Below, piece after piece: positions 6,772-21,805 of a stretch of DNA of 22,164 bases (the stretch's first letter is position 1; each line of letters begins with the position of its first letter). The position numbers were made by a program, and so were the translations under genes. The stretch covers positions 38,394-60,557 of the IMG/VR virus record IMGVR_UViG_3300030106_007858; one strand, written 5' to 3'. This DNA is from a virus. The notes beneath the pieces are model-generated. The model made no database searches, was not told where the DNA came from, and saw only the letters and a program-made list of their open reading frames with translations.

Positions 6772-7697
6772 AAATACTAATTACAGGAGGTGCTGGCTAC
6801 ATTGGAAGCGAGATGGTGGGATTTTTGCTTAATAAAGGACATGAAGTCACCGTGGTAGACACTTTAGACTATGGTTGCACATCTCTGCTGAGATACATCG
6901 GTCACCCAAGGTTTTATTTTGAAAAAATGGACGTTCGCAGAAGGGATTTGCTTAAACCAAAACTGCGGGAGGCTGATATTATTATCCCTCTTGCGTGTTT
7001 GGTGGGATTTCCACTATGCGAAGACAAGCCCACGGAAGCCATTGAGATTAATCATACCGCTAACGAATGGATAGCGGAAAATAAATCTAAAGACCAAAGG
7101 GTGATCTACCCCTGTACCAATTCTGGTTACGGCGTGGCAGACGGCGATGGTATATGCACCGAAGAATCTCCACTGAATCCGATATCTCTGTATGGATCTA
7201 CTAAAGTTAGTGCGGAGAAGGCATATCAACAGGCAGAAGAGTGTTGCACCCTGAGACTTGCCACCGTTTTTGGGCCTTCCAGCCGCCCCAGAACGGACTT
7301 ATTAGTAAATAATTTTGTTTTAAAAGCTCTAAAGGATAGAGTTTTAGTTTTGTATGAATGTGAATTTATGCGGAACTATGTGCATATTTGGGATATTTGT
7401 CGAGTTTACAATTTTATTATTGATAATTGGGATAAATGCAAAAACGAAACATTTAATATCGGAAATGATGATATTAATATGAACAAGCTTCAGTTAGCTG
7501 AAAAAATAAACCAGTATTGCCCAGTTGAGATTATTAAAGCGGAATTTACGCAAGACCTTGATAAGAGAAATTACATAGTCAGCAGTCAAAAAATTTATGA
7601 TTTGGGTTTTAGTTGTGAGTACGATTTAGATACAGGTATACAGCAGTTAATAAATATGTATGAGCTAATCGATGAGCCTTGGTATGGAAACTACTAA
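6768..7697 (+). CDS. NAD(P)-dependent nucleotide-sugar epimerase/dehydratase (extended SDR)
   Basis: This 309-residue extended SDR has the cofactor motif GGAGYIG (7-13), an acidic VVDTLDYG strand end favouring NAD, and the strand ADIIIPLACLVG in the place of the usual H-L-A-A. The catalytic pair is Y142-x3-K146 (LYGSTK), followed by LRLATVFGPSSRPR. It acts on an NDP-sugar (epimerisation or 4,6-dehydration); the substrate is not readable. The substitution PLACLVGFPLCEDKP, with a cysteine close to the usual substrate-binding region, is a recognisable variant of a subfamily frequent in LPS loci and phage sugar clusters. It sits directly after the HldE-like kinase with a 4-base overlap, so it may work on the same sugar. 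Confidence 0.85.
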   Translation: MKILITGGAGYIGSEMVGFLLNKGHEVTVVDTLDYGCTSLLRYIGHPRFYFEKMDVRRRDLLKPKLREADIIIPLACLVGFPLCEDKPTEAIEINHTANEWIAENKSKDQRVIYPCTNSGYGVADGDGICTEESPLNPISLYGSTKVSAEKAYQQAEECCTLRLATVFGPSSRPRTDLLVNNFVLKALKDRVLVLYECEFMRNYVHIWDICRVYNFIIDNWDKCKNETFNIGNDDINMNKLQLAEKINQYCPVEIIKAEFTQDLDKRNYIVSSQKIYDLGFSCEYDLDTGIQQLINMYELIDEPWYGNY

Positions 7698-7713
7698 AAC
7701 AAACACTTAAGCC

Positions 7714-8040
7714 ATGACGTATGTATTTGATATAGATGGAACTATTTGTGACAAGCCTAGCAAGGTTTATGATGATGGAGACTATTCTGAGTCTGTGCCT
7801 AATTATAATAGAATCAATAAGATTAATCAGTTATATGCAGAAGGCCACACCATACATTTTTTAACAGCCCGAGGTATGGGAAGATCAAAAAATAAGAGTC
7901 CAAATCTATTTAGGGACATAACAGAGAAACAACTTAAAGATTGGGGGGTAAATTACGATAAGCTTTTTATGGGTAAACCCGCTGGAGATTTTTATATAGA
8001 CGATAAAGGAGTAAAAGATGAAGAATTTTTCAAATATTAA
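7714..8040 (+). CDS. Small HAD-superfamily phosphatase
   Basis: This 108-residue protein contains the HAD motif I FDIDGTICD (D6 nucleophile, D8 acid/base), motif II in FLTARG, and motif IV in YIDDKG (D96, D97). A lysine just upstream (MGKPAGD) supplies motif III. It belongs to the tiny capless type annotated as capsule-biosynthesis phosphatase. Such proteins sit in LPS and capsule loci and probably dephosphorylate a sugar phosphate. In an HldE-like context it could do a GmhB-like step, but its short length and lack of the GmhB zinc cysteines argue against GmhB proper. A 16-base gap precedes it. It overlaps the cupin gene by 23 bases, with a Shine-Dalgarno (AAAGGAG, 8005-8011) for that gene lying inside its end. 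Confidence 0.85.
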   Translation: MTYVFDIDGTICDKPSKVYDDGDYSESVPNYNRINKINQLYAEGHTIHFLTARGMGRSKNKSPNLFRDITEKQLKDWGVNYDKLFMGKPAGDFYIDDKGVKDEEFFKY

Positions 8041-9418: not shown

Positions 9419-9766
9419 GTGCCAAAGACAAAAGGTCCAAATAAAAGAGAAATTCTTTTTCGATTGCTGGAGGTTCCCGATAAGGGGAGGCGACCCTTTT
9501 TTGCAAGGGAGATGAAGATGCTTAACGATCTTTGTGAGCGCTACTCATTAGAGTTTATGAATATCGTGGACTTTGGTAAAAAGTTTGACTCTCTTGCTTA
9601 TCTGGTTAGCGAAAAGTTAAGAGATGCGCTGGATCAAAAGTTCAGGGCTTTTAATTTTAGAGTTGATTTATCAAAGTATCACAGTTATGATATTGGTGCA
9701 AAGGCTGGAGAAGACCGCATTATAAATAAAAAAAATCAAACTATTAGAGACTTTTTGAATGAGTAG
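9419..9766 (+). CDS. Unknown protein at head of replication module
   Basis: This 115-residue basic protein is not recognised. It has a lysine/arginine-rich N-terminus (PKTKGPNKREILFRLLEV, then DKGRRPFFAREMKML) and a helical middle. The mixed C-terminus contains LSKYHSYDIGAKAGEDRI. No metal-binding motif, membrane segment or known fold is evident. Its position directly before the recombinase, overlapping it by 8 bases, would suit a recombination mediator, a single-strand-binding accessory or a helicase loader, but nothing in the sequence proves this. GTG at 9419 is the first start after an in-frame stop at 9407. The next ATG (9512) would remove 31 residues, including the basic head. A candidate promoter ends five bases before the GTG. 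Confidence 0.7.
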   Translation: MPKTKGPNKREILFRLLEVPDKGRRPFFAREMKMLNDLCERYSLEFMNIVDFGKKFDSLAYLVSEKLRDALDQKFRAFNFRVDLSKYHSYDIGAKAGEDRIINKKNQTIRDFLNE

Positions 9767-10871
9767 CGACATAAACCCAACAAACATTCTTAGTAATTAC
9801 TTGAAGGCAAACAAGGATGACCATTATAATTTCGAAGATACCGTGGAATACAAAGTATCCAGCGGCTCTCTGCAATTAGACCTTTATTTGGCAGGTGGAT
9901 TTGGACCTGGACTACATCGTTTTACAGGCGTTAACGAAGGCGGTAAGACATCCGAGTCCCTACAGGTCATGAGAAATTTCCTTGGTGCTTTAGAAAACTC
10001 TAGGGGCTTGTACATCAAAGCGGAAGGTAGGCTTGGCCCCGAAGTCCAAAAGAGGTCGGGTGTAAAGTTTGTATTTTCCCCCGAGGAGTGGGTTGATGGA
10101 ACATGTTTTGTCTTCGAAAGCAATATCTATGAAACAGCGATGGGCTTGATTAGGCAGTTGATTACAAACAATGACGATAAGATCAAATACTGCTTTATTG
10201 TGGATTCGGTAGACGGCTTAATTCGTAAAGATGATTTGGGCAAGAATTTTGAGGAGAGCAGTAAGGTTGCTGGGGGTGCGGTTATCGCCTCTGACTTCTG
10301 TAAGAAAACCAGCACCGCATTGGGCAAGCGTGGCCATATGGCGATATTCATCAGTCAGGTTCGTGCTGATATTAAGCTTGACCCATACGCAAAGTCTCCC
10401 GTTAGGCAAACTACCGCAACAGGAGGTAATGCCCTGCTGCACTTTGCTAATAACATAATGGAATTTGAGCCTCGGTTTAAGGGGGATTTGATTTTACAAA
10501 ACCCCTCAGTTAAAACCATGGACGCAAAGAAAAACCCTATAATCGGACATCATGCCAAGGTTACAATTAAAAAATCCGCGCATGAAAATACTAACACTAC
10601 CGTTTCCTATCCCATCCGCTATGGACGAACGGATGGCACCTCTATCTGGGTAGAAAAGGAGGTTATTGATTTGCTTTATGCGTGGGAGTTTGTCGAAAAG
10701 AAGGGCGCGTGGATCAAACCAACTGATGATTTTAAAGAGCTTCTTGCAACAAACAATTTAGAGTTTCCAGAAAAGATACAGGGCGACAATAAGCTGTTCA
10801 AAACGGTTGAGGAAGACAAAGATTTGTGTAAATTTTTGCTAGATTATTTTAAGGAGCAGATACAGGTATGA
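9759..10871 (+). CDS. RecA/UvsX-family strand-exchange recombinase
   Basis: This 370-residue RecA-fold ATPase has Walker A GVNEGGKT (57-64, lysine 63) and a Glu that matches the catalytic glutamate of RecA in YIKAEGRLGPEVQ. Walker B is CFIVDSVDGL (D149). FISQVRADIK is followed by the L2 region with TATGGNALLHFANNIMEF. RecA proteins pair and exchange DNA strands; phage versions drive recombination-dependent replication and repair. The N-terminal domain is shorter and the C-terminal part differs from bacterial RecA, which fits a phage UvsX-like protein rather than a captured host gene. The Walker A (N-E-G-G-K-T) departs from the bacterial P-E-S-S-G-K-T. ATG overlaps the gene before by 8 bases and the nuclease after by 4. 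Confidence 0.93.
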   Translation: MSSDINPTNILSNYLKANKDDHYNFEDTVEYKVSSGSLQLDLYLAGGFGPGLHRFTGVNEGGKTSESLQVMRNFLGALENSRGLYIKAEGRLGPEVQKRSGVKFVFSPEEWVDGTCFVFESNIYETAMGLIRQLITNNDDKIKYCFIVDSVDGLIRKDDLGKNFEESSKVAGGAVIASDFCKKTSTALGKRGHMAIFISQVRADIKLDPYAKSPVRQTTATGGNALLHFANNIMEFEPRFKGDLILQNPSVKTMDAKKNPIIGHHAKVTIKKSAHENTNTTVSYPIRYGRTDGTSIWVEKEVIDLLYAWEFVEKKGAWIKPTDDFKELLATNNLEFPEKIQGDNKLFKTVEEDKDLCKFLLDYFKEQIQV

Positions 10872-11275: not shown

Positions 11276-11523
11276 ATTTAGACGACTACGACAACGAAGA
11301 GAGTGATTTCAGGCTACCAACAGAATGGGTGGAGAAAATTTATGAATTATCTGGTGGGGCTGAAAAGTATAAAGGTATCCTCATGGCTCTTTCTTCAGAG
11401 CAGGGGGAACCACTTATATATTTTAAATACGACTCAGGAATGACTGAGGCCGCATTAACAAAAACCATGTCTGATTACTTGCGTAATATGGACAACAATA
11501 AGGAGAATAGCCCCGAAGAATGA
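11272..11523 (+). CDS. Small acidic protein of unknown function
   Basis: This 83-residue, strongly acidic protein is not recognised. It starts with LDDYDNEESDFRLP and ends in NMDNNKENSPEE, with a compact middle (TEWVEKIYELSGGAEKYKGILMAL, then EPLIYFKYDSG and a short helix). It has no motif, signal or membrane segment. It overlaps the nuclease before it and the helicase after it by 4 bases each, so it is co-translated with both. That is the position of small helicase-loader or regulatory subunits in some phages. An acidic single-strand-binding or DNA-mimic protein is another possibility. Nothing distinguishes these. Confidence 0.7.
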   Translation: MNLDDYDNEESDFRLPTEWVEKIYELSGGAEKYKGILMALSSEQGEPLIYFKYDSGMTEAALTKTMSDYLRNMDNNKENSPEE

Positions 11524-13037
11524 TTTACAATTTTGAACTTGAGAAGCAATTGTTGGCGGGGCTAATTAAAGAGCCTGATGCTTTGGCTGAGATATCTAAT
11601 TTTATTGGAACTGGTGATTTTTATTCTGAGAATAGCTCGCTGCATTCCACAATTTTTAGAATCATACAGCAGGCTATTGAGTCAGGGGATGAAGTTGATG
11701 AAGTTATAATTGCTCAGCGCGTAAACGATGTAGGTATATCCTTTCAGGACAACTTAAATCCCGCTGATTACATCAAGTCCCTCGCTTTACGCAAGGTTCC
11801 CAAGGGCAACACAATTAAGACGGCCAAAGAGCTAAAAAAATATTCTATTCGCCGTGAAATTTTAGATTCATCTGTGGATATTGGAAAGAAGATGAAGAAC
11901 ATGCCCTCCGAGGCATCTTATCGCAACATTATTGAAGCGGCTGATAATATCTATAATTCCAGAATAAATCTTTATGAATTAGGAAACGATATTCCCGAAA
12001 ATATTTATGAAGAGATGGAGTGCCTGATAGAGGAGAGGGGAAACAATCCTGTGACTGAATTTGGCATGATGGGTCCGCATACCAAAGTCAATGAAATTTA
12101 TGGATCATTACTGCGCCCAGGAAATATCACAGTAATAGTAGCAAGGTCAGGAGTTGGAAAGACAAACTTCTGTATGGACTACACAACAAAGGTGAGCCTC
12201 CAGTATGATGTTCCCGTTTTGCATTTTGATAATGGCGAAATGAGCAAAGAGGAGCTTATAATGCGCCAGTGCGCTGCCCTATCAGGCGTCCCAATGCATC
12301 TGCTAGAAAGTGGCAAGTGGAGACAGGCTGGCAATGAAGTTGTTAACAAGGTTCGTGCTGTCTGGCCAAAAATTAAGAGTTTGAAGTTTTATTACTATAA
12401 CGTTGGCGGTATGGATGTTGACTCAATGGTGAACACACTGAAGCGCTTTTATTATTCCAAGGTGGGTCGAGGCAATCATATGGTCTTCTCATTTGATTAC
12501 ATTAAAACCACCTCTGAGAACATAGCCAACAAATCCGAATGGCAGGTTGTGGGAGAAATGGTAGACAAGTTTAAGAAGTGCGTTCAAAAGGAGATTCTGC
12601 ATGAGGGCAATCCCGTTATCCCAATGATTACTTCCGTCCAATCAAACAGATATGGAATTACCAACAATAGGAATTCTCAAAACATTGTAGATGATGAGTC
12701 CATTGTGTCACTTTCAGATCGAATAACACAGTTCTGTTCCCACATGTTTATTTTGCGTAACAAAACAGCGGATGAAATGGAAACAGAGGGCAACAGATTT
12801 GGAACCCATAAACTTATCAACGTCAAGGCTCGACATCTAGGTAGCGACATAGCTGGCGCGATTGAGCCTGTTCGTGTTGGTGATGCTCTCCGTAAAAATG
12901 CCATTAATTTGAATTTTATGAATTTTAATATCACTGAGAGGGGCGATTTGAGAGATATCGCAAGAATGCTTGAGGGAGAGGAGGATTTAGATACGGATGG
13001 ACTCCAAGAGACAATCCCAGACTTCGATCAGTTCTGA
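11520..13037 (+). CDS. Replicative DNA helicase, DnaB-like
   Basis: This 505-residue hexameric helicase of the RecA-fold SF4 group has an N-terminal helical DnaB domain (LEKQLLAGLIKEPDALAEI, residues 6-24) and a linker. Its C-terminal ATPase has Walker A ARSGVGKTN (lysine 214) and the H1a-like FDNGEMSKEELIMR that carries the catalytic glutamate. Walker B is MVFSFDYIKTT, and the glutamine/arginine-finger region lies around SVQSNRYG. It unwinds the fork 5'-3' on the lagging strand and should work with the primase just downstream. The ATPase motifs all look intact. It is somewhat longer than bacterial DnaB (~450-470) because of insertions after the Walker B region. The stop lies 41 bases inside the primase gene, the longest overlap in the window. 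Confidence 0.95.
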   Translation: MIYNFELEKQLLAGLIKEPDALAEISNFIGTGDFYSENSSLHSTIFRIIQQAIESGDEVDEVIIAQRVNDVGISFQDNLNPADYIKSLALRKVPKGNTIKTAKELKKYSIRREILDSSVDIGKKMKNMPSEASYRNIIEAADNIYNSRINLYELGNDIPENIYEEMECLIEERGNNPVTEFGMMGPHTKVNEIYGSLLRPGNITVIVARSGVGKTNFCMDYTTKVSLQYDVPVLHFDNGEMSKEELIMRQCAALSGVPMHLLESGKWRQAGNEVVNKVRAVWPKIKSLKFYYYNVGGMDVDSMVNTLKRFYYSKVGRGNHMVFSFDYIKTTSENIANKSEWQVVGEMVDKFKKCVQKEILHEGNPVIPMITSVQSNRYGITNNRNSQNIVDDESIVSLSDRITQFCSHMFILRNKTADEMETEGNRFGTHKLINVKARHLGSDIAGAIEPVRVGDALRKNAINLNFMNFNITERGDLRDIARMLEGEEDLDTDGLQETIPDFDQF

Positions 13038-14067
13038 TGATTTTCAGGGTATCTTAGAATCGATTGGCTACAAGCTTATCGATTGCGGAGATCATTGGAG
13101 AACTCGCGCTGTGTATAGAGAGGGAGACAATGAAACCGCCCTTAAAATTTACAAGAATACTGGTGTATGGATGGACTTTGTACAAAACAAAGGTTCTAAG
13201 CCATTTGAAGCCTTAGTCAAAGAGACGCTACGAGATAATCCAAAGGAATTATCTGCTATTCTAGGTGGTGTCAAAAGGCAGATTGCCCCCACTTACGAAC
13301 AAAAAGAAACGATACAGATGGAAAAAATTTACCCTAACTCCTCATTAGATAAGCTATTTCCCAATTACAATTTTTATTGTCAAAGAGGCATCTCCGAAGC
13401 TACCCAAAAAGCCTTTAGGGTTGGCTTGGCGGGTGTTGGCAAGATGTATAGGAGAATGGTTTTTCCTATCTATAACGAACATAAGCAAATCATAGGCTTT
13501 TCTGGAAGGAAAGTAGACGACAACAATAATTACCCGAAATGGAAGCATATTGGCCGTCGCAACAATTGGGTTTACCCCGCGTTCAATCAGGATTCGGGCG
13601 TAAATGAAGAGATAGAGTTAAAAAAAGAAGTAATTTTAGTTGAAAGCATCGGTGATGCAATGGCACTTTATGAGCAAGGTATTAAAAACGTTTTGGTTAT
13701 GTTTGGTTTATCCGTTAACAGTCATATTATTAACTATCTTAATAGCAAGTCTATTGATCGGATTTTTATCTCTACTAATAATGATGACCACGGTGGGGAA
13801 AATAGAGGATTTACGGCAGCAATAAAGACCTTCATCAAACTGTCTGCTTATTTTGATTTAGATACATTAATTGTAAAATTCCCACCGAACCCATATAATG
13901 ATTTTGGTGATGCTCATCGGGATGGCCATGATTTGAACAAGCTTTGGATTAAAAAAGAGTATAATCAAGCCAAACAGCTAAGTTATATTTCAGAGTTTAT
14001 TAAAGGCAATACCTCCTGCTTCACTAAAAAAGAAATTAAGACCGCCTTAATGTTTAGTGATGCCTGA
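12997..14067 (+). CDS. DnaG-type primase with Toprim domain and degenerate zinc head
   Basis: This 356-residue protein has a Toprim domain in its second half. VILVESIGDAMAL supplies the catalytic E216 and D220, and FISTNNDDHGGENRG gives the second acidic cluster (D-D). The region around FCQRGISEATQKAFRVG resembles the DnaG core helix before Toprim. It should make RNA primers for the lagging strand with the DnaB-like helicase. The first 80 residues align in layout with a CHC2 zinc domain (GDHWRTRAVYREGDNETALKIY, then TGVWMDFV and PFEALV), but only one cysteine (C33) remains, so zinc binding is probably lost. ATG lies 41 bases inside the helicase gene, after a purine-rich GGGAGAGGAGG at 12974. 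It overlaps the next gene by 8 bases. It is shorter than bacterial DnaG (~600). Confidence 0.9.
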   Translation: MDSKRQSQTSISSDDFQGILESIGYKLIDCGDHWRTRAVYREGDNETALKIYKNTGVWMDFVQNKGSKPFEALVKETLRDNPKELSAILGGVKRQIAPTYEQKETIQMEKIYPNSSLDKLFPNYNFYCQRGISEATQKAFRVGLAGVGKMYRRMVFPIYNEHKQIIGFSGRKVDDNNNYPKWKHIGRRNNWVYPAFNQDSGVNEEIELKKEVILVESIGDAMALYEQGIKNVLVMFGLSVNSHIINYLNSKSIDRIFISTNNDDHGGENRGFTAAIKTFIKLSAYFDLDTLIVKFPPNPYNDFGDAHRDGHDLNKLWIKKEYNQAKQLSYISEFIKGNTSCFTKKEIKTALMFSDA

Positions 14068-15085
14068 ACCAATAACGCCACTTTCAGCTAGTAGAATTAA
14101 GACGGCTCAGTCCTGCTCTTGGTTGTATTGGTGTAAATATAAGCTAAAATTACCCGAGAAAGGCAATGATGGAGCAAGAAGAGGCTCTATTTGTCACCTA
14201 GTGTTCGAGGTTTTAGGCGTAAAGGGTAGGAAGAAATATTTTAATAAAATATTAAAAACTCAAGACGTATTTTGCATCCCCTCAATCAAAAGATTGATTC
14301 TTAAACATGCCACCAAAGAGGGGGTAGATGATCAGGAAAACATTGATCTAATGAAGGAGATGATTTACAATGGCTTGACCTATGACTTTTTTGGTCAAGA
14401 TTTAGGCAGGCCAACAAAAGAGTATTCCGAAAAAGATTTTGATATCATCAAAAATGACGGGAGTATACAATACAAAATAAGAGGCTTTATTGATAAGCTT
14501 TTTTTATATAAAAAACAAAAATTTGCTCTTATTAGAGACTTTAAGACCAGTAAGGATGTCTTTAAGGGGAAGGACCAGACAGATAACTTGCAGGACTTAA
14601 TGTATAGCTTGGCAGTTAAAAATTTATTCCCCGAATATTCGGATAGAGTTAGCGAATTTCTTTTCTTAAAATTTGATCTTGACCTTAATGCGAAAAAGTC
14701 TGGCATAGTTCGCATGAAAGCTTTAGATGAGGACGAGCTAAAGGGCTTTGAGATGCAGCTTTGCGAAATACAAAAATATTTAGATGGTTTTTCTGAAAAA
14801 GATGCTAGAAAAAATTACGCCGCCCACCAAGGCTTCCCAACCGACAACTCATTTACTGGCAAATTGCTTTGTGGATTTGCAACGCAAAAAGGGGAATTGA
14901 AAAAAGACGGTTCGCCAAAGTGGCACTGCCCTATGAAGTTTGACTTTTTCTTCTATGAGGTTTGGGATGCACATAAAAACAGGATTGGTTCATATTTTGA
15001 AGAGGAGTTTGCGGAAACGCTAGTGCCTGAGGGGGGTGGCTACGAAATGAAGTATTATCAAGGTTGCCCTGCACATTCTTGTTGA
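14060..15085 (+). CDS. RecB/Cas4-type PD-(D/E)XK nuclease
   Basis: This 341-residue protein starts with PLSASRIKTAQSCSWLYWCKYKLKLP, a typical opening of RecB/AddB/Cas4-like nucleases ('lSaSri.....Cp..f.y.y'). Nuclease motifs follow: H46 in SICHLVFE, D145 in GFIDKLFLY, D160 with K162 in LIRDFKTSKD, and Q-x-x-x-Y helices (DNLQDLMYSLAVK). Cysteines 19 and 25 near the start and several near the end (LLCGF, HCPMK, GCPAHSC) could hold an iron-sulfur cluster as in Cas4 and AddB, though the spacing is not canonical. It likely acts as a 5'-3' or end-processing exonuclease in recombination. ATG at 14060 is preferred over the GTG three bases earlier. It is the last gene before the polymerase block, and a promoter overlaps its stop. 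Confidence 0.87.
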   Translation: MPEPITPLSASRIKTAQSCSWLYWCKYKLKLPEKGNDGARRGSICHLVFEVLGVKGRKKYFNKILKTQDVFCIPSIKRLILKHATKEGVDDQENIDLMKEMIYNGLTYDFFGQDLGRPTKEYSEKDFDIIKNDGSIQYKIRGFIDKLFLYKKQKFALIRDFKTSKDVFKGKDQTDNLQDLMYSLAVKNLFPEYSDRVSEFLFLKFDLDLNAKKSGIVRMKALDEDELKGFEMQLCEIQKYLDGFSEKDARKNYAAHQGFPTDNSFTGKLLCGFATQKGELKKDGSPKWHCPMKFDFFFYEVWDAHKNRIGSYFEEEFAETLVPEGGGYEMKYYQGCPAHSC

Positions 15086-15115: not shown

Positions 15116-15853
15116 ATGACGCCAGTATTTAAGTCTACATTCTCCATAGGAAAAAGCATCTTAACGCTCGATCCCATCAGTTCAGAGGGCGGTGCGGATA
15201 GCATTATTGAAATCTGCAAAGAACACCAGATCGACCCACTTGTTTTGGTCGAGGATACCATGACGGGCTTTGTCAAGGCCCATAATATCTGCAAAGAAGA
15301 AAAGATTCGCCTTCTTTTTGGCTTACGCATAAGCTGCTGCAATGAGATTGGAGAAGAGGATGACTCAGAGCATAAGGTGATTATTTTTGCCAAAAACGAC
15401 AACGGCTGTCGGCTTTTGAATAAAATTTACTCTCACGCAAATACCGTGGGAGAGGGAAAAATTGATTTTAAATACTTAAACTCCATTTGGACGGAAGATG
15501 TTAATCTAATTATACCCTTTTACGACTCTTTCATTTTTAATAATCAAATGCATCTTAAGAAATGCATTCCTGATTTTAGTAATATTCTCCCGACATTTTG
15601 GTTGGAAGTCAACGGATTACCATTTGATGGTTTGGTGGCTGAAAAGGTGATGAAGTTCGCTGAGGGAATTGGTAGACCAGTGAAGCGGGTAAAAACCATC
15701 CTATATAAAAACAAGGCAGACGTTGAGGCGCTTCAGACCTATAAGGTTCTCTGTAATAGAAACTTTGGGAGAGCCGCCTCATTAAGCAGCCCAAACCTCA
15801 ATCACTTTGGCAGTAATGAATTCTGTCTTGAGTCTTATTTACAATATGCATGA
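15116..15853 (+). CDS. dnaE (N-terminal part): DNA polymerase III alpha, N-terminal PHP-domain fragment (split DnaE, inactive PHP)
   Basis: This 245-residue protein aligns along its length with the PHP domain of DnaE. FKSTFSIGKSILTLDP replaces the usual H-L-H-x-H-x-x-Y-S-x-x-D head. ADSIIEICKEHQIDPLVLVED fills the place of the alanine-rich helix and 'a-i-T-D' strand, then come RLLFGLRIS, KVIIFAKNDNGCRLLNKI, FWLEVNG and AEGIGRPVKRVKTILY, followed by DVEALQTYKVLC. It stops where the palm would begin. All conserved metal-binding histidines are gone, so a phosphoesterase role is very unlikely. In bacterial DnaE this domain is the docking site for the epsilon exonuclease, so it may serve as a scaffold. 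It overlaps the exonuclease gene by 8 bases. Low identity to bacterial DnaE makes the call rest on layout; the later half-gene is the strong support. Confidence 0.85.
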   Translation: MTPVFKSTFSIGKSILTLDPISSEGGADSIIEICKEHQIDPLVLVEDTMTGFVKAHNICKEEKIRLLFGLRISCCNEIGEEDDSEHKVIIFAKNDNGCRLLNKIYSHANTVGEGKIDFKYLNSIWTEDVNLIIPFYDSFIFNNQMHLKKCIPDFSNILPTFWLEVNGLPFDGLVAEKVMKFAEGIGRPVKRVKTILYKNKADVEALQTYKVLCNRNFGRAASLSSPNLNHFGSNEFCLESYLQYA

Positions 15854-16478
15854 GTCACTACTGAGATTTAATAAGAAACAACGATACGTTGTTTTCGATA
15901 CCGAGACTGAGGGCTTAAACTTGGTAACTTCTCGGCCTTGGCAGGTCGCTTGGTTACTTGTGGAGGGTGATAAGATAATCGATAAAAGAGATTTCTTTAT
16001 TCATTGGCCCAACTTAAATGTATCGGAAGGCGCAGCAAGAGTCACTGGTTTCTCTTATAATGATTATGCGAAGAAATCAATGCCCCCAAATGTTGTTTGG
16101 GAGAAGTTTGCTCACGATTTGTATAACGAAGACAACTTGGTTGTGGGGCAGAACCTGCTAGGCTTTGATGTTTATATGGTTAATGTGTGGCGTAGGTTGA
16201 TGGGCATGGATGCGGACCACTCTTACGTTAACAGGATCATAGATACAAAATCTTTAGCTACGGCCATCGCCAAGGACATCCCTGTCGAGAAAGAAAATTT
16301 CATCAATTGGCAATATAGACTGCTTAATCACAAAGAAAGAGGTTTGAGAACCTCACAAGCGACACTATTGAAAAAATATAACATTGACCATGACCCGCAG
16401 AGGTTACATGATGCGCTTTATGATATTGAGATGAATTTTAAAATTTTTAAGAAGCAGCTATTCGATTTGGAAATATGA
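15846..16478 (+). CDS. DEDDh 3'-5' exonuclease, proofreading type (DnaQ/epsilon-like)
   Basis: This 210-residue exonuclease has Exo I VVFDTETEG (D18, E20), Exo II GQNLLGFDVYMVN (D108) and Exo III LHDALYDIEMNF (H188, D193), the complete DEDDh set. In bacteria the epsilon subunit of this fold removes mismatched 3' ends and binds the DnaE PHP domain, and here the gene directly follows the PHP gene. No clamp-binding motif is obvious. It extends past the core by about 15 residues only. ATG at 15846 gives an 8-base overlap with the PHP gene, the coupling pattern seen elsewhere in this window. Earlier in-frame starts (TTG 15807, ATG 15816) lack a ribosome site and would add hydrophobic residues. A 4-base overlap leads to the cupin. 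A general exonuclease or T5-like role cannot be excluded. Confidence 0.92.
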   Translation: MHESLLRFNKKQRYVVFDTETEGLNLVTSRPWQVAWLLVEGDKIIDKRDFFIHWPNLNVSEGAARVTGFSYNDYAKKSMPPNVVWEKFAHDLYNEDNLVVGQNLLGFDVYMVNVWRRLMGMDADHSYVNRIIDTKSLATAIAKDIPVEKENFINWQYRLLNHKERGLRTSQATLLKKYNIDHDPQRLHDALYDIEMNFKIFKKQLFDLEI

Positions 16479-16825
16479 GTCACGAAACAAAAAAACATAC
16501 AGATTGGGGTCACACAGAATACCTGTTGCACACAGGTAAATATGCGGTAAAAAAAATAACAGTTAAACCACATTACCAAATCCCAGAGGAATATCACCAA
16601 CAGCGAGATGAACATTGGGTAGTCATTCAAGGTGAGTCGGTAATCACATTGCCACACGCCACAAGGATCACCAAAGCGGGTGACTCTATGTATATTCCAC
16701 GAAGAATGAAACACTCAATTTACAATATGGGTTTACAGCCCCTAGTGTTTATTGAGATACAAACTGGAGACTATTTGGGTGAAGACGACAGAATACCAAC
16801 GCCACAAAAAGACCATGCAGAGTAA
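16475..16825 (+). CDS. Stand-alone type II mannose-6-phosphate isomerase cupin (AlgA/ManC C-terminal domain-like)
   Basis: This 116-residue protein matches the C-terminal isomerase domain of AlgA/ManC/CpsB from end to end. It opens with DWGHTEYLLHTGKYAVKKITVKP, then YHQQRDEHWVVIQGESVITL, SMYIPRRMKHSIYN and PLVFIEIQTGDYLGEDD. That domain interconverts fructose-6-phosphate and mannose-6-phosphate, the first step to GDP-mannose. The guanylyltransferase half is absent. In the metal motif the usual H-x-H before R-x-E-H reads H41-Q42-Q43, so one expected histidine ligand is glutamine, which may change metal choice or activity. Its substrate chain ends at Gmd 8 kb away, yet it lies between the exonuclease and polymerase genes, overlapping them by 4 and 11 bases. 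A non-sugar role for the cupin remains possible. Confidence 0.88.
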   Translation: MSHETKKHTDWGHTEYLLHTGKYAVKKITVKPHYQIPEEYHQQRDEHWVVIQGESVITLPHATRITKAGDSMYIPRRMKHSIYNMGLQPLVFIEIQTGDYLGEDDRIPTPQKDHAE

Positions 16826-19367
16826 TTATCAGGGCTACGACACGCCATTTCCTGTTGGCGTAAAGCTTCCAGAAATTAAAATAGAAAAAAAATATTACGA
16901 TGAGGTTTCTTGCGGAGACCTGGAAGATAACTTCCAGTTTCTGAGGAAGCTCTGCTTCAAAAGATTAACCGAAAAAGGAATTGACCAGTTAGAAAATTCT
17001 CAGGTTTATTATGATCGCCTAAAGGAGGAGCTTGGCATTTTCGACGAATTGGGATTCGTTGATTACATTCTTCTGAATTGGGATATCATGAATTTTTGTA
17101 AAGAAAATGATATACCGACGGGAGCGGGGCGCGGTAGCGCAGCAGGTTCACTAGTTCTCTATGTCATTGGTGTGACGAACATTGATCCCATAGAATATGA
17201 TTTGTTTTTTGAGAGGTTCGTTTCAAAAAGTCGAGCCAGAAAGATTGAGCATGAGGGTGAGATTTATTTGGATGGAAGCTTACTAGCGGATGTTGATAAC
17301 GATATTTCTTATGACCGTCGCGTCGAGGTTATCCAATACATTGAAAACAAGTATAAAGGTAAAACGTCTAAAATTTTAACTTTAAACACACTCAGTGGCA
17401 AGTTATGCATGAAGGAGTGTGGGAAAATTGTAGAAGAGCTTTCGGAGGCCGACGTTAATCAGATAAGCGACACGATTCCTAAGCATTTCGGTAAGGTTGC
17501 TAAGTTAGATGTGGCATATGAAGAAAGTGAGAGCTTTAGAGCTTATGCAGATAAATACGCAAAAGTTTTTCGTATTGCCAAAAAGCTAGAGGGCTTAAAC
17601 AAGAATACAGGAGTTCACCCATCGGGCATTTCTATTTCATATTACCCCCTTGATGAAATCATGCCGCTTCAAACAACCAATGACGGCTCATTAATTTCGG
17701 GTTATGACATGAATGATGTCGCAAGCCTAAGTGTAAAGTTCGATATTTTAGGTTTAAGGACATTATCTGTTGTTTATGATGTTTGCAAGCAGATAGGCAT
17801 AGACTCGTCTGAGATTGACCCTCATGACCCGTCCATCTATGCGGCGTTAGCTTCCCTACGCTCACCCCAAGGACTCTTCCAGATCGAAGCTGAGACCAAT
17901 TTTAAGGTTTGTCAGTTGATTGCTCCTCAAAACCTTGAGCAGCTTTCGGCGGTAGTGGCAATTGCAAGACCTGGGGCATTAGAGTTTAAGGATAATTACC
18001 GCGACTATGTGAGAAGCGGGGAGTTCCAGTCAGTGCATGAATTCTTTGATGACATCTTAAGCTATACGGGCGGAATCCCACTGTATCAAGAGCAGTTAAT
18101 GAAAATGGCCGTCAAGGTTGGATTTAGCCTTGATGAATCAGAGCAGTTGCGGCGCATCGTTGGTAAGAAAAAGGTTGATCAAATGCCAGCTTGGAAAGCC
18201 AAAATCGAAGAGAAGGTTAAAGAAAATAATCTCGATGCCGCAGTCGCTGATGTTTTGTGGAAGGTGGCAGAGGATTCAGCTAACTACTCCTTTAACAAGT
18301 CACACTCAATTAGTTACGCTTATTTAGCGGCAATTACGGTATATCTAAAATTTAACTATCCCCAACAGTTCTTTTTAAGTCTTTTAAAATACGCTAAGTT
18401 TGAACCCAATTCCCATGAAGAGATTGCAAGAATTTCACAGGAATTAAGTCATTTTAACATTAAGTTATTGCCACCCGATTTAAATAAGTCCGACATAGAT
18501 TTTAAAATTGAAGGGAAAGATATCCGCTACGGACTCAATTCAATCAAAGGTGTATCCGATAAGGTCTTGCAAGCGCTCTTGGAGTTCAGGGAGGAGTCCT
18601 TCGACAACAAATATGAGGTTTTTTTGTCAGCAAAGCAAGCCGCACTAAATATAGGGACACTTTCAGCATTGATACAGGCGGGTTTACTAGACTCCTTTGT
18701 TTCAAGCAATAGATGCAGGTTGGTTTTAGAGGCTCAAACCTTTAATATTCTAACAGATCGCGAAAAGCGCAATTTTCTAGAGTTAGGCGAAAAATATAAT
18801 TACGACATCCTTGCTGCCGTCCATGACTGTTTTAAAACAGAGGCTGTGGGCGATGATAATCGTAAATTATTTACAGATAAAAGATTTACTACTTTCAAAA
18901 AGAAGTATGATCCTTATAAAAATATTTACGAGATGAATAAAAGTCATATTAAATATGCCAATTGGTTTTTTGAGGAAAAATTGTTGGGATATAGCTATTC
19001 ATACAATGTTAGGCAGGTTTTTAATCATGAGGAGGACTTTCAATCGTCAGAAGTTATAAAAGACAGGGAAAACAGAAGTAATGTAAAGTTCGTTGGTTCT
19101 GTTATAGACATTATGCGAAGAACAAGCCGCAATAATAACAAATACGCACGGATGCAACTTCAAGACGAGTGCGGTATAGTCAATGGTTTATTCCTTGATG
19201 GCGACAGAGAGGCTCGCTTAACAAATTATCTCGACTCAGGAAAAAAACTACCCAAAAAAGGAGAAGTTGTGATAATTTATGGTTCTAAGGGTGATGATGT
19301 AGTTTTCATTGATAAAATTTTTCCACTGAAAGACAAAATCTACATGAAGCTATCTGAGCTTAAATAG
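16815..19367 (+). CDS. dnaE (C-terminal part): DNA polymerase III alpha, palm-fingers-OB core (split DnaE, catalytic)
   Basis: This 850-residue family C polymerase core contains GAGRGSAAGSL (103-113), which binds the incoming nucleotide. D161 and D163 in ADVDNDI match E. coli D401 and D403, and D310 in VKFDILGLRTL matches D555. Further DnaE segments are RKLEGLNKNTGVHPSGISI-like, FQIEAETNF, GGIPLYQEQLM, LRRIVGKKK, YSFNKSHSISYAYLA and the C-terminal OB fold near residues 745-820. It is the chain-building subunit of replication. It begins with PFPVGVKLPEIKI, where the sequence after PHP resumes, so ~10-25 residues linking the two halves are missing relative to bacterial DnaE. It stops after the OB fold, lacking the tau-binding tail. 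No internal clamp-binding pentapeptide is obvious. ATG at 16815 (11-base overlap) is preferred over 16752. Confidence 0.95.
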   Translation: MQSNYQGYDTPFPVGVKLPEIKIEKKYYDEVSCGDLEDNFQFLRKLCFKRLTEKGIDQLENSQVYYDRLKEELGIFDELGFVDYILLNWDIMNFCKENDIPTGAGRGSAAGSLVLYVIGVTNIDPIEYDLFFERFVSKSRARKIEHEGEIYLDGSLLADVDNDISYDRRVEVIQYIENKYKGKTSKILTLNTLSGKLCMKECGKIVEELSEADVNQISDTIPKHFGKVAKLDVAYEESESFRAYADKYAKVFRIAKKLEGLNKNTGVHPSGISISYYPLDEIMPLQTTNDGSLISGYDMNDVASLSVKFDILGLRTLSVVYDVCKQIGIDSSEIDPHDPSIYAALASLRSPQGLFQIEAETNFKVCQLIAPQNLEQLSAVVAIARPGALEFKDNYRDYVRSGEFQSVHEFFDDILSYTGGIPLYQEQLMKMAVKVGFSLDESEQLRRIVGKKKVDQMPAWKAKIEEKVKENNLDAAVADVLWKVAEDSANYSFNKSHSISYAYLAAITVYLKFNYPQQFFLSLLKYAKFEPNSHEEIARISQELSHFNIKLLPPDLNKSDIDFKIEGKDIRYGLNSIKGVSDKVLQALLEFREESFDNKYEVFLSAKQAALNIGTLSALIQAGLLDSFVSSNRCRLVLEAQTFNILTDREKRNFLELGEKYNYDILAAVHDCFKTEAVGDDNRKLFTDKRFTTFKKKYDPYKNIYEMNKSHIKYANWFFEEKLLGYSYSYNVRQVFNHEEDFQSSEVIKDRENRSNVKFVGSVIDIMRRTSRNNNKYARMQLQDECGIVNGLFLDGDREARLTNYLDSGKKLPKKGEVVIIYGSKGDDVVFIDKIFPLKDKIYMKLSELK

Positions 19368-19378
19368 TGTAAACAAAT

Positions 19379-21805
19379 ATGATGGGTCTAACCGATTTTA
19401 ACCTTACCCCAAAAGCCAAAAAGGGATTTAAAGATGCCCAAAAGTTCGCAGAAGCAAATGGACATTCACTAATCACCAACGCGCACTTGATTTATGGCTG
19501 CTTGGCAAACATTTCAGATAGCTGTGCCATAAAGCTAAAAACTTATGGTGTGCCTTTGGATTTAAAGACGTATATAGGTCACTTTAAAAAGTATTCTGCC
19601 GATAACAAAGATCAATTTAAAGCGAAAAAGGGCGCAGGAGCATGGCATGACGAGGTGAATAAGGCCGTCTTTTTCGCAAAAGAGTTTTCTGATAATTTTG
19701 ACAGTTATTTTATCAGCGTAGAGCATCTCTTGTTTATTGTTTTTGACATGGGCGGTCCGTTTATAGAATATTTGCGCGAAAACGGTTCAGATGTTTATTA
19801 TGCTAAAGATATTATAGAGGGTCACATTTTAGAAAGTAGTATTCCACAGCATGAAACGATCAAGAAGCTTTTAAGCATAGAGGGCAAGCCTAAGGACCGC
19901 AGGCCAGAGCCAGAGCGGGCTGTGGATAATTTATCGCGTTACGCCATAAACATGAATCATGAATTCATCACAAAAAGGAATTCAAAAATTTCAGGAAGAG
20001 ATGTCGAAACTAGCGAATTGGTTGAGATTTTATCAAAAAGAAACAAAAGTAACGCAATTTTAGTTGGGGAAGCGGGCGTTGGGAAGACTGCAATCGTGGA
20101 GGGTTTAGCGCAGCGAATAGTGAACCAAGAAGTTCCAGCACATATGTCATTGATGCAGGTATTGTGCGTTGATATTAGCGCTATGATTGCTGGAACTAAG
20201 TATCGAGGGGAGTTCGAGGAAAGGTTTAAGAGCTTAATACTTGAGGCGGAAAAAGACCCCAATATCATCTTATTTTTTGATGAGGTTCATACAATTATAG
20301 GGGCAGGTAACTCTGAAGGCTCTATAGATGCGTCGAATATGCTTAAGCCAGCATTGGCTCGCGGTGCGATCAAGTGCATAGGTGCAACTACCCTGCAAGA
20401 ATATAAAAAATTCTTTGAAAAGGATTCAGCCATGAAGCGCCGCTTTGACAAGATAGAGGTTAGCGAACCCTCTCTTGAGCAAACAAAGGAGATAGTCATG
20501 AAAACGCTGCCGTTTTACGAGAGTTTTCATCACGTTAAATATACTGAGGCTGATGTGGATCATATCATTGATTTATGCGATAAATTTTTAACCAACAAAA
20601 GATTTCCAGATAAGGCTTTTGATGTGATAGATCAGTTGGGCGCTAAAACTAAAATTAAGTATAAAACTGTGCCAGCAAAAGTGGAGCAGGCGCGGGAAAA
20701 ATTTTGCAAGCTTTTAAAAAATACGGAAGAGGAAGATGGCTTAAATGAGTCGCAATTCACTGAAATGCTTAAAGAGTATATCGAAACAATGGCTCGTTTT
20801 ACACAGAAGAAGGGGCGCAGCCAAAAAGTCAGATATACGGATATTGTTAACGTGATTGTTGAAAAAACTGGGCTTTCAAAAAAGACGGTATCCAAAAATA
20901 ACTCATCATTCTCTAAGTTTTCGAAGGAAATGGGCAAAGAGGTGTTTGGGCAGCAGGACAATTTAAGAGTCATCCACGACACGCTGTCTTGTGTGAAAGC
21001 GGGATTGAATGATCCAGTTAAACCGCTATCTAATTTTTTATTTGTTGGCGGAACAAGCGTGGGAAAAACCTTTACAGCTAAAAAAATTGCTAAATATTTT
21101 TACGGTAATGAAAAGTCCTTTATTCAACTTAATATGAGTGAATATCAGGACAAAACGGGCATTTCAAAACTTATTGGAGCAAACGCTGGATATGTGGGCT
21201 ATGAGGAGGGTGGCTTATTAACAGAGTTTGTTCGCAATAACCCCAACTGCGTTGTGCTTTTTGATGAAGTTGAAAAATGTGACCCAAAGATCCTCGATTT
21301 ACTTTTGCATATTTTAGATGAGGGTTATGCCACGGATAATTTAAATAGGCGCATAGACTTTAGTAAAACAATCGTTGTGATGACAACGAATATAGGTCAT
21401 TCCGAAAAATCAAAGAGAAGCATGGGCTTTTTGCCCGATAAACCCAAAGATGAAGATGTTTATAAAAAATCTCTAAAAAAATACCTAAGACCCGAGTTAA
21501 TATCTCGCATAGATGAAATTTTATTTTTCAATGATCTTAATGATAAGCATCTACTAAAAATAATAGAGGCAGAATTAATAAAAATCCAAGATCGCTTGGG
21601 CGAGAAGAATATTACGTTTACACTTTCCGCAGCCTTGAAAAATCACGTTTTGCAGCAGATTAAGAATAAAAATCAAAACGCTAGAAATATTAAAAATGTT
21701 ATAAAAACTTTGGTGCAGGTGCCGCTTTCAGAATTCATCATAAAAAACCAGAAGATTGAAAAAATTTCCACAAAAATAATTGACAAACAGTTAGTTTTGA
21801 GCTAG
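19379..21805 (+). CDS. ClpA/ClpC-type AAA+ protein unfoldase
   Basis: This 808-residue HSP100 protein has two AAA+ rings. An N-terminal Clp_N-like domain (residues ~1-145, including SLITNAHLIYG and VEHLLFIVFDMGG) is followed by AAA1. AAA1 has Walker A GEAGVGKTA (K236), Walker B LFFDEVHTI (D301, E302) and an arginine pair in MKRRFD. A short middle segment leads to AAA2 with Walker A GGTSVGKTF (K563) and Walker B LFDEVEKC (D629, E630). SMGFLPDK (M682-G683-F684) occupies the place of the I-G-F/L or V-G-F loop that docks ClpP in ClpX, ClpA and ClpC, and SRIDEILFF provides sensor 2 nearby. No long ClpB-type coiled coil is present. It would unfold proteins, probably for host ClpP. No phage ClpP is in the window. 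It begins 11 bases after the polymerase stop. Confidence 0.95.
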   Translation: MMGLTDFNLTPKAKKGFKDAQKFAEANGHSLITNAHLIYGCLANISDSCAIKLKTYGVPLDLKTYIGHFKKYSADNKDQFKAKKGAGAWHDEVNKAVFFAKEFSDNFDSYFISVEHLLFIVFDMGGPFIEYLRENGSDVYYAKDIIEGHILESSIPQHETIKKLLSIEGKPKDRRPEPERAVDNLSRYAINMNHEFITKRNSKISGRDVETSELVEILSKRNKSNAILVGEAGVGKTAIVEGLAQRIVNQEVPAHMSLMQVLCVDISAMIAGTKYRGEFEERFKSLILEAEKDPNIILFFDEVHTIIGAGNSEGSIDASNMLKPALARGAIKCIGATTLQEYKKFFEKDSAMKRRFDKIEVSEPSLEQTKEIVMKTLPFYESFHHVKYTEADVDHIIDLCDKFLTNKRFPDKAFDVIDQLGAKTKIKYKTVPAKVEQAREKFCKLLKNTEEEDGLNESQFTEMLKEYIETMARFTQKKGRSQKVRYTDIVNVIVEKTGLSKKTVSKNNSSFSKFSKEMGKEVFGQQDNLRVIHDTLSCVKAGLNDPVKPLSNFLFVGGTSVGKTFTAKKIAKYFYGNEKSFIQLNMSEYQDKTGISKLIGANAGYVGYEEGGLLTEFVRNNPNCVVLFDEVEKCDPKILDLLLHILDEGYATDNLNRRIDFSKTIVVMTTNIGHSEKSKRSMGFLPDKPKDEDVYKKSLKKYLRPELISRIDEILFFNDLNDKHLLKIIEAELIKIQDRLGEKNITFTLSAALKNHVLQQIKNKNQNARNIKNVIKTLVQVPLSEFIIKNQKIEKISTKIIDKQLVLS

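What the first reader, a model, noticed from the sequence alone, without database searches (positions are those of the whole stretch)
15116..19367. DNA polymerase III alpha divided into a PHP gene and a palm/fingers/OB gene, with two other genes between
The two halves together follow DnaE order from the N-terminal PHP domain to the OB fold. They are separate genes 961 bases apart, with an exonuclease gene and a sugar-isomerase cupin gene between them. The polymerase half keeps all three catalytic aspartates (D161, D163, D310). Neither half shows intein splice motifs, unlike the known split dnaE intein of cyanobacteria. I infer that the two proteins reassemble without splicing into a polymerase whose PHP domain is a free scaffold. 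This would be a distinct architecture for a family C replicase.
Basis: partly seen in the sequence, partly recalled or inferred. Interest (0 to 1): 0.85.

Follow-up and report, generated by a model that had tools for sequence, protein, structure and literature searches.

The report
Phage replicase with detached PHP domain
A large group of uncultured phages makes its DnaE-type DNA polymerase from separate genes: the N-terminal PHP domain, a proofreading exonuclease and the polymerase body, with no protein-splicing element. This arrangement is conserved across the group, so it is a natural test of what the PHP domain does for this polymerase family.

Summary
15116-15853 encodes a stand-alone DnaE PHP domain (AlphaFold pLDDT 88; the 18 best PDB hits are all DnaE alpha chains). 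16815-19367 encodes a DnaE palm/fingers/HhH/OB protein with D161, D163 and D310.

The split is not an assembly error. All 239 IMG/VR loci with at least 4.5 kb upstream of POL carry separate PHP and DEDDh exonuclease genes. In 188 distinct loci the order is always PHP-EXO-POL on one strand. No fusion was found down to about 50% POL identity. PHP dN/dS is 0.07. Sixteen records of up to 203 kb have one C-family palm, one PHP and no recognisable family A or B polymerase.

No intein fits at the junction, though one relative has a split intein elsewhere in POL.

Corrections: the exonuclease is a constant partner; the cupin is a rare insert (3 genomes). A PHP/pol split is already published in one sentence for Microbacterium cluster EF phages; the tree shows that split is independent.

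Non-covalent reassembly of PHP, POL and exonuclease is the best explanation but is inferred: covariation was inconclusive and no complex could be modelled. Verdict: a deeply conserved new variant of a known kind, moderately interesting.

The parts
15116..15853 (+). Stand-alone DnaE-type PHP domain protein, 245 aa, metal ligands lost
   Evidence: phrog_405 E=9.5e-15; AF2 pLDDT 88; Foldseek top 18 all DnaE; hhalign 1-245 vs single-chain phage DnaE 1-297, prob 96%; dN/dS 0.07
15846..16478 (+). DEDDh 3'-5' exonuclease, 210 aa, proposed proofreading subunit; D18, E20, D108, H188, D193 intact
   Evidence: RNase_T E=5.5e-14; phrog_192 'DNA polymerase exonuclease subunit' E=8e-25; catalytic residues invariant in 38 relatives; present in 239/239 loci
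16475..16825 (+). Cupin (mannose-6-phosphate isomerase C-terminal type): accessory insert at the EXO/POL junction, not part of the replicase
   Evidence: PF01050 E=1.8e-26; at this position only in window, L002 and L003; other ORFs occupy the same place in L011/L153, L129-L136, L144 and others
16815..19367 (+). DnaE palm/thumb/fingers/HhH/OB protein without PHP, 850 aa, D161/D163/D310 intact
   Evidence: PF07733, PF17657, PF14579; Taq DnaE E=2e-94; AF2 pLDDT 82 and Foldseek top 14 all DnaE
9759..10871 (+). UvsX/RecA-like recombinase, neighbouring replication gene
   Evidence: phrog_97 E=4e-31; conserved upstream in relatives
11520..13037 (+). DnaB-like replicative helicase, neighbouring gene
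   Evidence: phrog_19 E=1.7e-37
12997..14067 (+). DnaG-like primase (Toprim), neighbouring gene
   Evidence: phrog_47 E=2.8e-22
14057..15085 (+). PD-(D/E)XK (Cas4/RecB-like) nuclease, neighbouring gene
   Evidence: PF12705 E=9e-13
19379..21805 (+). ClpA/B-type AAA+ ATPase directly downstream of POL in the window's part of the clade
   Evidence: phrog_4871 E=1e-201; conserved in most relatives

Best explanation
This is a family C (DnaE-type) phage replicase whose alpha subunit is permanently encoded as two proteins, a catalytically dead PHP protein and a palm/fingers/HhH/OB protein, alongside a DEDDh exonuclease gene. Most likely (inferred) the PHP protein docks non-covalently on the polymerase body where the PHP domain sits in ordinary DnaE, stabilises the fold, and bridges the exonuclease to the polymerase, giving a three-subunit proofreading core. 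No splicing takes place. Shown: the domain identities, the complete and non-overlapping tiling of a DnaE, the absence of an intein at this junction, purifying selection on PHP, fixed co-occurrence and order, and the lack of another recognisable A-, B- or C-family polymerase in the records. Inferred: complex formation, PHP bridging the exonuclease, and use of the host sliding clamp (no beta clamp was found).
For: Domain identity by profile, structure prediction and fold search. PHP aligns to residues 1-297 of a single-chain phage DnaE and POL matches the same chain from 342 at profile position 39, so the pieces abut. Separate PHP and EXO genes in 239/239 loci with enough upstream sequence; order PHP-EXO-POL in 188/188 distinct loci; no fusion among 319 loci. 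PHP dN/dS 0.07. One C-family palm, one PHP, no Pol A or Pol B in 16 records of 60-203 kb. PHP metal ligands degenerate while EXO keeps DEDDh, matching the published rule that loss of PHP metal ligands goes with a separate proofreading exonuclease and that PHP integrity stabilises Pol III (PMC3666897).
Against: No direct interface evidence: MI and mean-field covariation between PHP and POL did not clearly exceed control protein pairs (effective sequences about 84-90, underpowered). The exonuclease lacks the long C-terminal tail that E. coli epsilon uses to bind PHP (210 aa, ends 22 residues after H188), so any bridge must work differently. Other ORFs sit between the genes in many relatives, so tight translational coupling is not required.
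Confidence: 0.75

Rival explanations
1. The PHP protein has left the polymerase and does a separate job (for example regulatory or nucleic-acid binding), while POL works as a PHP-less DnaE.
For: PHP evolves faster than POL (dN/dS 0.07 against 0.03); in L262 PHP carries an extra C-terminal domain (phrog_18407); covariation with POL is inconclusive.
Against: It never occurs without POL downstream in the loci examined, and never in a second copy in 16 large records; it keeps the whole DnaE PHP fold while losing metal ligands; a PHP domain is described as strictly conserved in replicative bacterial C-family polymerases (PMC3666897).
Confidence: 0.15
2. The pieces are rejoined by trans-splicing or by a programmed event (unrecognised split intein, frameshift or RNA splicing).
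For: Inteins occur in this clade: L347 has a split intein inside POL at SFNK|SHSIS and an intein in NrdA.
Against: PHP ends where the DnaE PHP ends and POL begins at the next DnaE segment, leaving no room for intein halves; no intein family hit in PHP or POL of the window; EXO always lies between, so no frameshift can join them; no Rfam intron in the window.
Confidence: 0.03
3. The split is a sequencing or assembly artefact, or a decayed gene.
Against: 188 distinct POL loci from many independent metagenomes share it, and dN/dS is low in all three genes.
Confidence: 0.01
4. It is a dismantled PolC, since PolC has an exonuclease inside its PHP domain before the palm.
For: The gene order PHP, exonuclease, palm recalls PolC; the EXO profile finds a PolC-type exonuclease first in PDB (2p1j, E=7e-8).
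Against: POL is DnaE by sequence (3e0d E=2e-94 against PolC 1e-5) and by fold (DnaE ranks 1-14, PolC from rank 15); the OB fold is C-terminal as in DnaE; the PHP gene is a whole DnaE PHP, not a PHP interrupted by exonuclease.
Confidence: 0.03

Closest known systems
Microbacterium phage cluster EF / Krampusvirus DnaE (Karate gp55+gp56, TinyMiny gp61+gp63)
   Same: PHP (344-345 aa) and polymerase body (753-767 aa) in two neighbouring genes, no intein apparent; more than 30 cultured phages; [quoted passage not shown]
   Different: Independent origin: nested among single-chain DnaEs (Gibson, 60% identical; Troll4) with full support. PHP keeps the HxH motif. No exonuclease gene between.
Cellulophaga phage phiST and Tenacibaculum phage Larrie DnaE (two genes, 515-525 + 673-676 aa)
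   Same: DnaE encoded by two adjacent genes in cultured marine phages.
   Different: The split is inside the palm, so PHP stays with the N-terminal palm part, and there are about 50 extra residues at the junction that could be an atypical split intein (not resolved).
E. coli DNA polymerase III core (alpha + epsilon)
   Same: DnaE polymerase with degenerate PHP and a separate DEDDh exonuclease (PMC3666897).
   Different: PHP is covalently part of alpha; epsilon has a C-terminal alpha-binding tail, absent here; alpha has a C-terminal domain after OB, absent here.
Cyanobacterial split dnaE intein
   Same: DnaE encoded by two genes.
   Different: There the halves are trans-spliced; here no intein sequence exists at the PHP|POL junction.
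PolC
   Same: PHP, exonuclease and palm in this order along the DNA.
   Different: Single chain, exonuclease inserted in PHP, N-terminal OB; sequence and fold of POL are DnaE-like.

Membership tests
DnaE-type Pol III alpha (family C) | Family C palm with three catalytic aspartates | tested here: met
   PF07733 E=8e-60; D161, D163, D310 invariant
DnaE-type Pol III alpha (family C) | Fingers domain and HhH module in DnaE order | tested here: met
   PF17657 E=1e-29, PF14579 E=2e-18
DnaE-type Pol III alpha (family C) | OB fold C-terminal to HhH | tested here: met
   Pfam hit sub-threshold (0.016); full-length fold alignment to 3e0d/7pu7 and OB proteins in Foldseek
DnaE-type Pol III alpha (family C) | PHP domain on the same polypeptide | tested here: not met
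   PHP encoded by a separate gene in every relative
DnaE-type Pol III alpha (family C) | DnaE PHP domain present in the assembled enzyme (in cis or in trans) | not testable with these tools
   The PHP gene is always present, but binding to POL could not be tested
DnaE-type Pol III alpha (family C) | C-terminal (tau-binding) domain after OB | tested here: not met
   POL ends directly after the OB region at residue 850
DnaE-type Pol III alpha (family C) | Clamp-binding motif | tested here: inconclusive
   No canonical motif seen by eye in POL; no beta clamp in 16 records, with controls positive
PolC | N-terminal OB and exonuclease inserted in PHP on one chain | tested here: not met
   Separate genes, C-terminal OB, DnaE closest
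Split-intein DnaE | IntN after the N-part and IntC before the C-part | tested here: not met
   No surplus residues at the junction, no Pfam intein hit in PHP or POL; contrast L347, where Pfam does flag one (E=2e-4, below its cut-off)
DnaQ/epsilon proofreading exonuclease | DEDDh catalytic residues | tested here: met
   D18, E20, D108, H188, D193
DnaQ/epsilon proofreading exonuclease | C-terminal tail that binds alpha PHP (bona fide epsilon in PMC3666897) | tested here: not met
   Protein ends 22 residues after H188
Active PHP phosphoesterase/nuclease | Nine metal ligands HHDHEH(C/H)DH | tested here: not met
   HxH, DH and E positions replaced in the alignment to an active-type phage PHP

The most novel reading that the evidence does not exclude
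A major lineage of uncultivated phages has turned the PHP domain of a family C replicase into an obligatory, separately encoded subunit that bridges polymerase and exonuclease, so the proofreading core is a three-protein complex that could be exchanged or regulated at the fork.
Probability: 0.4. Interest if true: 0.65.

Novelty: new variant of a known kind. Interest (0 to 1): 0.5.

Why it matters
Replicative C-family polymerases are described as always carrying a PHP domain, often catalytically dead, and its non-enzymatic role is argued from point mutants in E. coli (PMC3666897). A large natural clade in which PHP is a free protein lets that role be tested by simply adding or leaving out the subunit. 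It also shows that the PHP/palm linker has been cut at least twice in evolution without an intein at the junction.

Tried and rejected
T4-type clamp (PF02916) and T4 major capsid (PF07068): no hits, but the controls did not ring either, so uninformative. PolC origin because of the gene order: rejected by sequence and fold. Artefact: rejected. Direct single-sequence search of PDB with the PHP protein gave only a spurious hit, so the fold search was needed. The 2011 survey of viral replicases (doi 10.1093/nar/gkr564, not held) could not be checked, so an earlier mention of PHP-less viral DnaE cannot be excluded.

Full report
Observation. 15116-15853 encodes 245 aa; POL starts at ATG 16815 and ends at 19367 (850 aa), 961 bases after the PHP stop. 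Between them lie a 210-aa exonuclease (15846-16478) that overlaps the PHP stop by 8 bases and a 116-aa cupin (16475-16825) that overlaps POL by 11 bases. D161, D163 and D310 of POL are present and invariant among 38 relatives.

Identity of the halves. POL hits PF07733, PF17657 and PF14579 strongly, phrog_405 at E=8e-161, and Taq DnaE at E=2e-94 while PolC is only about 1e-5; its AF2 model (pLDDT 82) matches fourteen DnaE structures before any PolC. The PHP protein is divergent: Pfam PHP is just under threshold, but phrog_405 is E=9.5e-15, the AF2 model has pLDDT 88, and the eighteen best PDB matches are all DnaE alpha entries. Profile alignment places it on residues 1-297 of the single-chain Moorella phage DnaE, and POL aligns to the same protein from 342 at POL profile position 39, so POL starts near 304. 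The two proteins abut with no surplus sequence.

Conservation. Viral-contig scans stepping outward to about 50% POL identity gave 319 loci with a hit to PHP, EXO or POL, including duplicates from one contig. In none are PHP, EXO or POL fused. All 239 loci with at least 4.5 kb upstream of POL have both PHP and EXO; in the 188 distinct complete sets the order is always PHP-EXO-POL on one strand, with the gap at most 60 bases in 137 (PHP/EXO) and 97 (EXO/POL) of them. Median dN/dS is 0.07, 0.04 and 0.03 for PHP, EXO and POL. Sixteen records of 60-203 kb each have exactly one C-family palm and one PHP and no family A or B polymerase, with positive controls. The split is therefore an old, selected state, and this is the only recognisable replicative polymerase in the records.

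Cupin. It is found between EXO and POL only in the window, L002 and L003. Other unrelated ORFs occupy that place in other relatives, so this junction accepts cargo; the cupin is not part of the replicase.

Inteins. No intein family hit exists in PHP or POL of the window, and there is no room for one. L347, a relative on a Verrucomicrobiales MAG contig, has the same intein-free PHP gene but its POL is broken in two by a split intein at YSFNK|SHSIS. Inteins in this clade can therefore be recognised, and the PHP/POL split is of another kind.

Mechanism. The PHP protein has lost HxH, DH and E metal ligands, whereas the exonuclease keeps DEDDh. In bacteria, loss of PHP ligands goes with a separate proofreading exonuclease, and PHP integrity supports the stability and activity of Pol III (PMC3666897). 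I infer that PHP rebinds POL in its usual place and helps hold the exonuclease. The exonuclease lacks the epsilon tail, so the contact must differ. No beta clamp was found, with positive controls; use of the host clamp is a guess. Covariation did not resolve the interface.

What is known. Microbacterium cluster EF phages have PHP and polymerase in two genes, recorded in one sentence of PMC7302621. Their polymerase nests with single-chain DnaEs (Gibson, Troll4), while the present clade forms one group with full support, so the two splits are independent. Cellulophaga phiST and Tenacibaculum Larrie have DnaE cut inside the palm, and Rossellomorea phiT1 is cut between palm and fingers. The literature held here gave no description of the present clade, but a key 2011 survey was not available.

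Verdict. Real, conserved and useful, but a variant of a known kind; the central functional claim still needs an interaction test.

Noticed in passing
L347:4995-6776 and 6798-7979: A relative's POL is cut in two genes by a split intein (C1 'CMSLDTLVEG', C-terminal '...HNFYAEGLVTSN|SHSIS') at the conserved SFNK|SHS site, so this polymerase comes as three pieces, two presumably trans-spliced and one (PHP) not.
   Followed up: partly
L347:203-2926: Ribonucleotide reductase large subunit on the same contig appears to carry a full intein.
   Followed up: no
L262:3970-5325: PHP gene of this relative has an extra C-terminal domain of about 200 aa matching phrog_18407 (unknown function).
   Followed up: no
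L196:216-3263: POL of this relative has a 171-aa N-terminal extension with no PHROG match.
   Followed up: no
window:16475-16825; L129, L153, L144, L201 between EXO and POL or PHP and EXO: The PHP/EXO/POL junctions collect unrelated small genes (cupin, methyltransferase-like and unknown ORFs), suggesting a cargo hot spot.
   Followed up: partly
window:19379-21805: ClpA/B-type AAA+ ATPase (phrog_4871) lies directly after POL in the window's part of the clade but was not found there in the L201 group.
   Followed up: no
window:1-9416: Long run of sugar-nucleotide, methyltransferase, radical-SAM and epimerase-like genes upstream of the replication genes, apparently a glycan-modification cluster.
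   Followed up: no
L354:2752-6352 and L355:2761-6341: Cellulophaga phiST and Tenacibaculum Larrie DnaE are cut inside the palm with about 50 extra residues ending the first gene and about 17 starting the second; this may be an atypical split intein.
   Followed up: partly
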